A stretch of 25,360 nucleotides of DNA from Gemmatimonadota bacterium. GTDB taxonomy: Bacteria > GCA-2686955. The notes under the pieces are model-generated. The model was not told the DNA's origin, did no database searches, and saw nothing but the letters and a program-made list of their open reading frames with translations. This document shows, piece after piece, positions 21,917 through 25,360 of the stretch (its first letter is position 1; the number at the start of each line of letters is the position of its first letter). Location of the stretch: assembly GCA_002686955.1 (NCBI GenBank), contig NYZA01000217.1:1-25360 (forward strand), written 5' to 3'. The position numbers were made by a program, and so were the translations under genes.

Positions 21917-23539
21917 ATGCGTCCCCAGCGCGAAATCGGAGGAGCCGTCAACTGGCTTCTGATCCTGCTCGCCACCGCCGGTCTCGTCGCATCGATCATG
22001 ATCCCGGGCCGGGCGATGTCTCGCGCGGAGCACGAGAAGACCCAGGCTCGCAAAGAGATGCTCGAAATCGTCACCTTCGAGAATCGGGCCTACAGCGAGC
22101 GGCAGGAGTACATCGGCACCCTCGATTCCCTCCAGCTCTTCTTGGATTGGCAGACGGAGCGGTACCGGGTGGTTCTCGACTCTCTCGGTGGGTTTTTCGA
22201 AACGCTCGAGCATCCGCTGGAGGAGGTGGATCGGGCGGCGGAGAAGGCGGCCAAGCTCCGGGAGTACCTTCAGTACGTCGAGGATCTGTCGACCAAGGAC
22301 CGCTACGTCGCGATCGCCGACTCGGTCTACCGTTTTCTCAGATATCAGGCCGATATTCAATCCGGCGCGGTCGAGTTCAGGCGGCTCTTCGAGGAGGTGG
22401 CCGATGCGTTGAGCAGTGACGCCATCGAGCCCGCCGAATTCGCCAAGCTGGCCTCCAAGGTGGACAGCCTGGAATTGGTCTTTCGCACCGATCCGGAGCA
22501 GGTCGAGGCGCACAACGCCTACCGCGAAGCGCTCTACCTGACGCGGGGACTGATCCCGGCCCGCGAAAGATTCCAGACATCGCTCGTCGACCTCGACACA
22601 TACCTGGAGTCGGGGGGGCGCTGGCCCGAAGCCCTGCGGCTGGCCGGGCGGCGTGCGGACAGTCTTCGTTTCTGTTTCCTCTTCGGTGGCGACGCGAGCG
22701 CGAACCAGTCGCTCGAATCGATAGGCAACTTTTTGGCATATCGGGCGGATCTGATCGAGCGGCGCGAAGGGTACGAGAGCCTCTTCGGTACCGTGGCCGA
22801 CTATCTGCGCGACGAGAGCCGAGACCCCGAGATCGCTCGTGAGATGTCGAACCACACCGACAGTTTGAAGTACTGCTTCCTCTTCGACACTCCGGGGGTT
22901 CTCGGTATGCCGATCGATCAGACCGGGACCGATGGGGAAGAGGGGACGGAGGTCCATGATCGACCGGTCGATCTGAGCCGAATCTCGAACTTCTTGTACG
23001 GTATGGCATCGGCTTGGAACACTCAGCTCGACAGCCTTACCGAGGTCGTGCCCGAGAGTGAGAGAAGGGCGCATCGCAAGGCACGCGAAGAGCTGAAGTC
23101 GCGGTTCGCCTCGGATCAGGCGGCCAAGCTCGGTCGCGCGACCGGATTCGCGGAGAAGCTCGAGCTGATGCGCGGCGAGCTGGGCGGAAAGCTGGAGAAC
23201 ATCGAAGCCGATCTGGCCGAGCATCGCGCACTGATTCCCGATGTGCGGGCGGCTCTGGAGGCCAGGCTCGCGGGTGGTGCCGGAGAAACCGTGACTCTGG
23301 CTGTTCTGCGCGAGACCTTCGAGAGCAACCTGGCGGGCAACGAGAGCCGATACACTCAGTTGAAATCGCAGATCGAGCGGCTCGATCGGAGCCACTTCCC
23401 CCGATCGAAGCTCTCCACGCACTCGCCTGCGCACCCGCAAGCGATGTATCGCCTGGAAATCGAGGGTGACAAGATCTCGGTACGCTCTTTTCACCGTGAC
23501 GACTTCGGCGAGATCATCGAAGGGGACGCGACCTGGTAG
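21917..23539 (+). CDS. Single-pass membrane protein with ~66-residue helical repeats, unknown function
   Basis: 540 residues. One N-terminal membrane helix (about 15-30, WLLILLATAGLVASIMI) anchors a long, charged, helix-rich domain. The same short motif recurs at regular distance: FLDWQTERY near residue 75, FLRYQADIQ near 140, YLTRGLIPA near 207, FLAYRADLI near 272, and FLYGMASAW near 359. Each unit ends with D-S-L plus an aromatic/F-L-F stretch (residues 183, 248, 315). An acidic linker (about 333-352) precedes the last unit. The C-terminal third is coiled-coil-like. I do not recognise a family. AGAGGA six bases before the ATG supports this start. It converges on the CBS-like gene across the palindromic repeat. 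Confidence 0.8.
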   Translation: MRPQREIGGAVNWLLILLATAGLVASIMIPGRAMSRAEHEKTQARKEMLEIVTFENRAYSERQEYIGTLDSLQLFLDWQTERYRVVLDSLGGFFETLEHPLEEVDRAAEKAAKLREYLQYVEDLSTKDRYVAIADSVYRFLRYQADIQSGAVEFRRLFEEVADALSSDAIEPAEFAKLASKVDSLELVFRTDPEQVEAHNAYREALYLTRGLIPARERFQTSLVDLDTYLESGGRWPEALRLAGRRADSLRFCFLFGGDASANQSLESIGNFLAYRADLIERREGYESLFGTVADYLRDESRDPEIAREMSNHTDSLKYCFLFDTPGVLGMPIDQTGTDGEEGTEVHDRPVDLSRISNFLYGMASAWNTQLDSLTEVVPESERRAHRKAREELKSRFASDQAAKLGRATGFAEKLELMRGELGGKLENIEADLAEHRALIPDVRAALEARLAGGAGETVTLAVLRETFESNLAGNESRYTQLKSQIERLDRSHFPRSKLSTHSPAHPQAMYRLEIEGDKISVRSFHRDDFGEIIEGDATW

Positions 23540-23629
23540 GGGTCCGCGCAGGAACAACTAGCGGCTTTGGCCTCCCATCTGCACCACATATCTGGGCGCC
23601 CGAATCACTGGTTGTTCCTGCGCGGACCC
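23540..23629. repeat. 90-base palindromic repeat element with 19-base perfect inverted arms
   Basis: The left arm GGGTCCGCGCAGGAACAAC (23540-23558) is an exact inverted repeat of 23611-23629. The arms flank 52 bases that contain ATCTGGGCGCC. It fills the whole gap between two convergent stop codons, starting one base after the stop at 23537-23539 and ending seven bases before the stop at 23639-23637. A related partial copy is at 13085-13140 in the opposite orientation and also shares the outer TTAGG (23630-23634). As RNA it would form a strong hairpin on either strand, so it may act as a terminator or processing signal for both genes. Confidence 0.85.
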
Positions 23630-23636
23630 TTAGGAG

Positions 23637-24605
23637 TCAGTCCAAGAACCCCCGCTCCTTCATCCAATCGTCGTTGAATACCGATCCCAGATAGCGTGTT
23701 GCGCTGTCCGGAAAGATCGTGACGATGCGGGCGGGCTCGTCCAGCGAATTCGCTAGCTTCATCGATGCCCAGAGCGCGGCGCCGCTCGATCCGCCCCCGA
23801 GGATCCCCTCGCTCCTCACCAACAGCCGAGCGTGGTGAAATATGTCGTGATCGGATGCGCGGTAGATATCGTCGATGTACTGGAAATCGGGACAGTCGAT
23901 CAGGAACTCGTCGCCCAACCCCTCGACCACGTAGGTATGGGGCTCCACCAGCTTGCCGTGATGAAAGTGGTCGTAGAAGATCGAGCCCTCGGGGTCGACC
24001 GCTATCGTCTTGATGCGCGGGTCCCGCTCTTTTAGAAATCGCGACGTTCCGCACACGGTACCGCCGGTGCCGATGCCCGCCACCAGATAGTCGATCTTTC
24101 CGTCCATCTGGTCCCAGATCTCGGGACCGGTCGTCAGGTAATGAGCCTCATTGTTGTCGGGACTGTTGTGCTGATCGGGGAAGTACGCACCAGGAGTCGC
24201 CGCGGCCATTCGCGGCGTAATATTGTTGTAGCTCTCGGGGGATTCCGGCGGAAGAGTGCTGTCGACGGCATGAACGTCGACATCGAGCGCTCGCAGGAGG
24301 GCCAGCTTCTCTTTGCTCAGCGAATCGCGGACCACTACTTTCAGACGGTATCCCTTCTGGATCGCGACCAGAGCGAGGCCCACCGCGGTATTCCCCGAAG
24401 AGCTCTCGATGATCAACTGTCCAGCCTCGATCTTCCCCTCGGTCTCGGCCTTCTCGATCATATGCCTGGCGATCCGATCCTTCACGCTTCCCGTCGGGTT
24501 CATGAACTCGAGCTTGGCGAAGATCCGGCTTTCGAGACCCGCGGTGATCTTGTTGAGTCGCACGAGGGGTGTGCGGCCGATTGCGTCCAGTATGCTGTTC
24601 AGCAT
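23637..24605 (-). CDS. PLP-dependent cystathionine beta-synthase / cysteine synthase
   Basis: 322 residues, fold-type II PLP enzyme. The cofactor lysine is in NPTGSVKDRIA, about residue 42. The substrate loop is ESSSGNTAVGLAL near 67-79, the phosphate-binding loop is GIGTGGTVCG, and the pyrimidine-ring Ser lies in the C-terminal FPDSATRYL. The stretches VVEGLGDEFLIDCPDF and the ending FNDDWMKERGFLD are those of cystathionine beta-synthase rather than O-acetylserine sulfhydrylase, but the C-terminal CBS regulatory domain is absent. It therefore makes cystathionine or cysteine; the choice needs phylogeny. No strong ribosome binding site is seen before the ATG at 24605. A terminator-like hairpin lies in its 5' region. 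Confidence 0.88.
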   Translation of the reverse strand: MLNSILDAIGRTPLVRLNKITAGLESRIFAKLEFMNPTGSVKDRIARHMIEKAETEGKIEAGQLIIESSSGNTAVGLALVAIQKGYRLKVVVRDSLSKEKLALLRALDVDVHAVDSTLPPESPESYNNITPRMAAATPGAYFPDQHNSPDNNEAHYLTTGPEIWDQMDGKIDYLVAGIGTGGTVCGTSRFLKERDPRIKTIAVDPEGSIFYDHFHHGKLVEPHTYVVEGLGDEFLIDCPDFQYIDDIYRASDHDIFHHARLLVRSEGILGGGSSGAALWASMKLANSLDEPARIVTIFPDSATRYLGSVFNDDWMKERGFLD

Positions 24606-24626: not shown

Positions 24627-24667
24627 AATAAAGAAAGCCGGAAACCCCGTGTTCAGCGGCTTCCGGC
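24627..24667 (-). terminator. Rho-independent terminator upstream of the CBS-like gene
   Basis: On the minus strand a seven-base stem GCCGGAA / TTCCGGC (24667-24661 with 24643-24637) is followed by TTTCTTTATT. It stands about 20 bases before the ATG at 24605, so it ends an upstream transcript or acts as an attenuator of the CBS-like gene. Confidence 0.55.
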
Positions 24668-24670
24668 CTC

Positions 24671-24863
24671 CTGCGAGGATCTCTGATCCTCGCAGACGCT
24701 GGTCACCACCGTTGGTAACCAACGGGGTCGTCCAGAGAGGTCCTCAGGGGTGCCCACGCACGTGGTGTCCCGCCGGTGGCTGTGGGAGAGAAGGGTCCTG
24801 ATCGCTATCAGGGGTGACCCGGGGAGGTCGTAGCAGTATCGGCCGAATCGAGAGTATCCCCGG
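24671..24863 (-). ncRNA. Hairpin-rich block, candidate structured RNA or leader of unknown type
   Basis: Consecutive near-perfect inverted repeats crowd this region: 24671-24680 with 24686-24695 (10 bp), CCGTTGG/CCAACGG at 24709-24725 (7 bp, 3-base loop), CCAC/GTGG at 24754-24765, CCTGAT/ATCAGG at 24797-24812, and CCGGGGA/TCCCCGG at 24819-24825 with 24857-24863. A longer-range pair GGTCACC (24701-24707) with GGTGACC (24813-24819) could close a multi-branched fold. The minus strand is favoured because a terminator follows in that direction, immediately before the CBS-like gene. I compared it with SAM, T-box, TPP, cobalamin, c-di-GMP and SAH riboswitches, tmRNA, RNase P, SRP and 6S RNA and recognised none. 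Confidence 0.35.
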
Positions 24864-24956: not shown

Positions 24957-25340
24957 TTAATGTCTTTCCTCAATTTGACGCAGCAGCGTCAGGAGAGCGC
25001 TACTCCTAAAGAAGCCTTCGGAGGAACCTGTGACTCCGAACTCGTTTCCGCTAGAGCCGCCATAGACCACAGTCAATCCCTCTGGCTGGAGGACCAGTGT
25101 TCGGTCGGGGATACCCGGATACCAGCCATGAGGCGAGAGAGTGTGTAGCCGGGGTGCGAGATTCTCACGAACTTCCACCTGTTCCGCGGCAGCCAAGTCA
25201 GCAATTGGCGACCAGATAAACAGTCTAGCATCCATCCAGTGGAAACCATCATAGATCTCTAGAGATATTGTCAAAAGTTGTGGATCGGGGGGGCCGGGTT
25301 GAGGGCATGAAAAAAGGTGGCGTAACCTTCGGGTGACCAA
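24957..25340 (-). CDS. Unrecognised ORF of lower GC content, start uncertain, possibly partial
   Basis: A 127-codon frame that is also open to the right edge of the window. The internal sequence looks protein-like (SLEIYDGFHWMDARLFIWSP, then SPHGWYPGIPDRTLVLQPEG) with mixed hydrophobic and charged residues. Codon choice includes many A/T-ending codons (CTA, ATA, TCT, AGA, GAT), unlike the surrounding GC-rich genes. The only start at the 5' end is a TTG without a ribosome binding site, and runs of C7 and T6 (as read on the minus strand) lie in the first part, so a frameshift or a start beyond the window is possible. No family recognised. Confidence 0.4.
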   Translation of the reverse strand: MVTRRLRHLFSCPQPGPPDPQLLTISLEIYDGFHWMDARLFIWSPIADLAAAEQVEVRENLAPRLHTLSPHGWYPGIPDRTLVLQPEGLTVVYGGSSGNEFGVTGSSEGFFRSSALLTLLRQIEERH

Positions 25341-25360
25341 AAACCCGAGGCCCGGCGGAA

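What the first reader, a model, noticed from the sequence alone, without database searches (positions are those of the whole stretch)
24637..24863. Hairpin-rich intergenic RNA candidate with terminator upstream of a CBS-like gene
About 225 bases contain at least five adjacent strong stems plus a possible long-range closing pair, followed on the minus strand by a stem and T tract ending about 20 bases before the coding start. This is the arrangement of a riboswitch/attenuator or a small RNA gene, and it matches none of the common classes I could compare from memory. An effector linked to sulfur amino acids would be the natural guess if it is cis-acting.
Basis: partly seen in the sequence, partly recalled or inferred. 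Interest (0 to 1): 0.62.

Follow-up and report, generated by a model that had tools for sequence, protein, structure and literature searches.

The report
Orphan hairpin-rich spacer with RNA terminator
Next to a cysteine-synthase-like gene in a bacterium from a barely sampled phylum lies a short stretch that would fold into a row of hairpins ending in a transcription stop signal; it is a real structure, but nothing found supports calling it a sulfur-sensing riboswitch, and no relative was found to test it further.

Summary
On the minus strand, 24861-24627 gives a chain of hairpins (three modest, three strong), the last being an intrinsic terminator with a T-rich tail that ends 21 bases before the ATG of a 322-aa PLP-enzyme (cysteine synthase/CBS-like) gene. 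The folding energy beats all 200 shuffles (z -4.5), and the region ranks third of 137 intergenic gaps sampled from this genome. The interpretation as a riboswitch or attenuator is not supported. Rfam has no match; orthologues of the gene in Aminicenantes, Acidobacteria and others (up to 69% identity) have short leaders with no such structure; no antiterminator pairing better than shuffles was seen; and a covariance model finds no homologue in the genome's only held phylum-mate, 58 other sampled genomes, or 14 genomes carrying close orthologues. With no homologues, covariation cannot be tested. The best reading is an orphan, lineage-specific structured RNA, either a small RNA or a long structured 3' end, whose terminator closes the upstream transcription unit. 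The upstream ORF is cut by an IS end at the contig edge. A functional terminator with otherwise unselected hairpins remains a serious rival. CsrB-type and 6S readings were tested and found no support.

The parts
24821..24861 (-). H1, modest hairpin with inner stem-loops
   Evidence: -9.0 kcal/mol; MFE
24793..24820 (-). H2 hairpin GGGU-cacc-CCUGAU-agcg-AUCAGG-ACCC
   Evidence: -10.6 kcal/mol
24747..24771 (-). H3 hairpin GGG-aca-CCAC-gugc-GUGG-gca-CCC
   Evidence: -9.9 kcal/mol
24699..24735 (-). H5 strong hairpin; contains the perfect DNA palindrome CCGTTGGTTACCAACGG (24709-24725)
   Evidence: -18.8 kcal/mol; exact core CGTTGGTNACCAACG found only here in the genome
24671..24695 (-). H6 strong hairpin, 11-bp perfect arms, 3-nt loop
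   Evidence: -18.3 kcal/mol
24627..24668 (-). H7 intrinsic terminator: stem-loop 24668-24637 plus TTTCTTTATT tail 24636-24627
   Evidence: -20.6 kcal/mol, pairing probability about 1
23637..24605 (-). 322-aa PLP-dependent enzyme (PALP, cysteine synthase/CBS-like catalytic domain only)
   Evidence: Pfam PF00291 1.4e-74; NCBIfam TIGR01137 363.5 bits, under its cut-off of 510
24957..25260 (-). Rest of an upstream ORF (about 100 aa) of unknown family, cut at its 5' side by an IS end
25261..25360 (.). End of a Mutator/IS256-like insertion sequence, at which the contig stops
   Evidence: 91% identical to the flank of a transposase copy on contig C254; Pfam Transposase_mut

Best explanation
An orphan, lineage-specific structured RNA read on the minus strand: either a small RNA with its own promoter or the long structured 3' end of the upstream (now IS-cut) transcript. 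Its hairpins would stabilise the RNA, and H7 with its T tract stops RNA polymerase before the PLP-enzyme gene, which is then read from its own promoter near its start, as relatives appear to do. Shown: the structure and terminator are predicted far beyond chance. Inferred: that it is transcribed, that H5/H6 serve stability or binding, and where the promoters lie.
For: Strong minus-strand folding bias ending exactly in a terminator. Rare for this genome: third of 137 intergenic gaps, and one of only 8 intergenic terminator-like sites in 0.92 Mb; four of the other seven lie 23-48 bases after a stop codon, whereas this one lies 289 bases after the nearest upstream stop, leaving room for a structured RNA. 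Orthologous genes show -10-like boxes (TATAAT, TATACT, CATACT) close to the ATG and no long leader.
Against: No homologue in any searched genome, so no covariation; no transcript data; no consensus sigma-70 promoter in the region. The PLP gene's own promoter could not be identified here. Single-sequence folding z-scores do not prove a functional RNA.
Confidence: 0.48

Rival explanations
1. Only H7 is functional, as an ordinary intrinsic terminator of an upstream minus-strand unit; the other hairpins are unselected sequence or decayed remnants in a spacer reshaped by insertion sequences.
For: IS end at the contig edge and an orphan, cut ORF beside it; no homologue and no family; perfect palindromes with arms of at least 8 are common in this GC-rich genome (236 overlapping counts in 0.92 Mb).
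Against: H5 and H6 stand together and with H7; only five close palindrome pairs in 0.92 Mb; the whole region is z -4.5.
Confidence: 0.27
2. Cis-acting attenuator or riboswitch of the PLP-enzyme gene: transcription starts upstream, and ligand binding decides between the terminator and an alternative fold.
For: Terminator ends 21 bases before the ATG, same strand; no strong separate promoter between terminator and ATG was found.
Against: Absent from orthologues. Best pairings of upstream RNA with terminator arms do not beat shuffles (P 0.60 and 0.18), and the terminator forms with probability about 1. No Rfam class. Short leader ORFs show no run of Cys or Met codons.
Confidence: 0.17
3. DNA-level sites: the palindromes at 24709-24725 and 24671-24695 are operators bound by dimeric regulators of the downstream gene, and their hairpin look is incidental.
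For: CCGTTGGTTACCAACGG is a perfect 8+1+8 palindrome and CTGCGAGGATC-N3-GATCCTCGCAG an 11+3+11 one, 65-120 bases before the gene.
Against: No second exact copy in the genome; one-mismatch copies are few, and the one examined, in G001, lies in coding sequence. Does not explain the terminator or the strand bias of folding.
Confidence: 0.08

Closest known systems
Bacterial small RNAs or structured 3' ends closed by an intrinsic terminator
   Same: Run of stem-loops ending in a GC-rich hairpin and T tract, in an intergenic spacer
   Different: No family match, no homologue, no transcript evidence, no identified promoter
Transcription-terminating riboswitches and attenuators
   Same: Terminator just before a biosynthetic gene on the same strand
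   Different: No conserved aptamer, no antiterminator, orthologues lack it
CsrB/RsmZ-type CsrA-binding RNAs
   Same: Several hairpins; 8 GGA triplets, 4 AGGA
   Different: GGA count equals shuffles (P 0.53), the triplets are mostly not in hairpin loops, and no CsrA is found in this genome
6S RNA (RF00013)
   Same: Similar length
   Different: Hairpin row, not one long bulged rod; no Rfam match here, nor a credible one elsewhere in the genome

Membership tests
Any Rfam 15 family | Match at the curated gathering score | tested here: not met
   0 matches in the window; only sub-threshold chance matches with a permissive search
Riboswitch/attenuator of the CBS-like gene | Conserved leader structure upstream of orthologous genes | tested here: not met
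   Orthologue leaders short and unrelated; model R1 finds nothing convincing in those loci
Riboswitch/attenuator of the CBS-like gene | Terminator with a competing antiterminator | tested here: inconclusive
   Terminator present; alternative pairings no better than shuffles
Riboswitch/attenuator of the CBS-like gene | Covariation supporting stems | not testable with these tools
   No homologues found
Riboswitch/attenuator of the CBS-like gene | Ligand-dependent expression | not testable with these tools
   Needs an experiment
Small RNA with intrinsic terminator | Intrinsic terminator at the 3' end | tested here: met
   H7 plus TTTCTTTATT
Small RNA with intrinsic terminator | Own promoter | tested here: inconclusive
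   No sigma-70 consensus found; promoters of this phylum are unknown
Small RNA with intrinsic terminator | Discrete transcript | not testable with these tools
   No RNA-seq
CsrB-type RNA | Excess of GGA in hairpin loops and a CsrA protein in the genome | tested here: not met
   GGA count P 0.53 (AGGA P 0.02); no CsrA over the cut-off in G000, which is 84.5% complete
6S RNA | RF00013 match | tested here: not met

The most novel reading that the evidence does not exclude
A new class of structured regulatory RNA confined to a barely sampled phylum, acting as a leader that controls cysteine or cystathionine metabolism through the terminator.
Probability: 0.07. Interest if true: 0.6.

Novelty: new member of a known kind. 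Interest (0 to 1): 0.24.

Why it matters
If transcribed, it is an undescribed structured RNA from a phylum with only two genomes held here. It cannot be ranked as a class until related genomes exist; for now it is one candidate among the many structured spacers known in bacteria.

Tried and rejected
Rfam at gathering and permissive thresholds; tRNA/tmRNA. DNA search in own genome, 60 relatives, phages and plasmids: no copy. Single-sequence covariance model R1: only chance-level hits (best other-genome hit E 0.06); ORF lists around the two best of these hits did not point to a related locus. CsrA sponge: GGA not enriched, no CsrA found. 6S. Leader peptide: no Cys- or Met-rich ORF. Relation to the dispersed inverted-repeat family next door: no similarity. 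Operator palindrome repeated in the genome: no. A literature search for cysteine-gene leader RNAs gave nothing used here. A first greedy hairpin-cluster count was confounded by overlapping stems and is not used; a first folding survey timed out; several structure strings had the wrong length.

Full report
Observation. The minus strand of 24866-24621 reads as a chain of hairpins, H1-H3 modest and H5-H7 strong, the last followed by TTTCTTTATT, 21 bases before the ATG at 24605. Its energy is below all 200 shuffles, z -4.50, and the minus strand is favoured over the plus strand. Against the genome itself, one of 1359 tiles from about 0.3 Mb is as extreme. Among 137 intergenic gaps of 150 bases or more in 0.92 Mb, only two are more extreme, and both overlap copies of a dispersed inverted-repeat family. 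So the structure is real and uncommon here.

Terminator. The stock scan missed H7, but a scan allowing its long interior loop finds it as one of three stringent intergenic sites in 0.92 Mb and one of eight relaxed ones. In four of the other seven relaxed sites the terminator lies 23-48 bases after a stop codon; here it lies 289 bases after the nearest upstream stop. The stem forms with probability about 1 in the 355-base spacer.

Surroundings. The downstream gene encodes a 322-aa PALP-family enzyme nearest to the catalytic part of CBS and cysteine synthases. The upstream ORF is an orphan whose start lies in the end of a Mutator/IS256-like element, where the contig stops.

Comparative tests. 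The phylum has only two genomes held, and the other has no close orthologue of the enzyme. Orthologues elsewhere are up to 69% identical. Their upstream regions are short or unrelated, several with a -10-like box close to the ATG, and none resembles this spacer. DNA search and a covariance model built from this one sequence find no credible homologue. A single-sequence model has limited reach, so a diverged homologue could be missed, but no covariation test is possible. Rfam is silent.

Mechanism. A cis attenuator needs a competing fold. The best pairings of the upstream RNA with the terminator's arms are no better than with shuffled RNA (P 0.60 and 0.18), and no Cys/Met leader peptide is seen. 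A CsrA-binding RNA fails on motif excess and on the absence of CsrA. The reading that fits best is a minus-strand structured RNA or 3' end closed by a terminator that insulates the enzyme gene; transcription is inferred, not shown. A plain terminator with incidental hairpins is the main rival. DNA-level palindromic operators are less likely, since the palindrome core is unique in the genome.

Verdict. Real, orphan, ordinary in kind; modest interest until relatives or transcripts are available.

Noticed in passing
window 23536-23640; L152 17829-18030; L125 4470-4651; L163 7070-7160: A dispersed inverted-repeat element, about 100-200 bp, with at least a dozen copies in 0.92 Mb of this genome. 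The outer arms differ between copies (e.g. GGTCCGCGC, CGCCGACC) yet stay complementary within a copy, as in a MITE- or REP-like family.
   Followed up: partly
window 25261-25360: The contig stops inside an IS256/Mutator-like element; the end carries an outward TTGACA that, with TATGAT 15 bases on, could form a hybrid promoter for the cut ORF.
   Followed up: partly
G000 and G001: The CsrA family is found over its cut-off in G001 but not in G000; may reflect incompleteness.
   Followed up: no
G000 intergenic regions: Intrinsic terminator-like sites are scarce in this genome: 8 in about 81 kb of intergenic sequence.
   Followed up: partly
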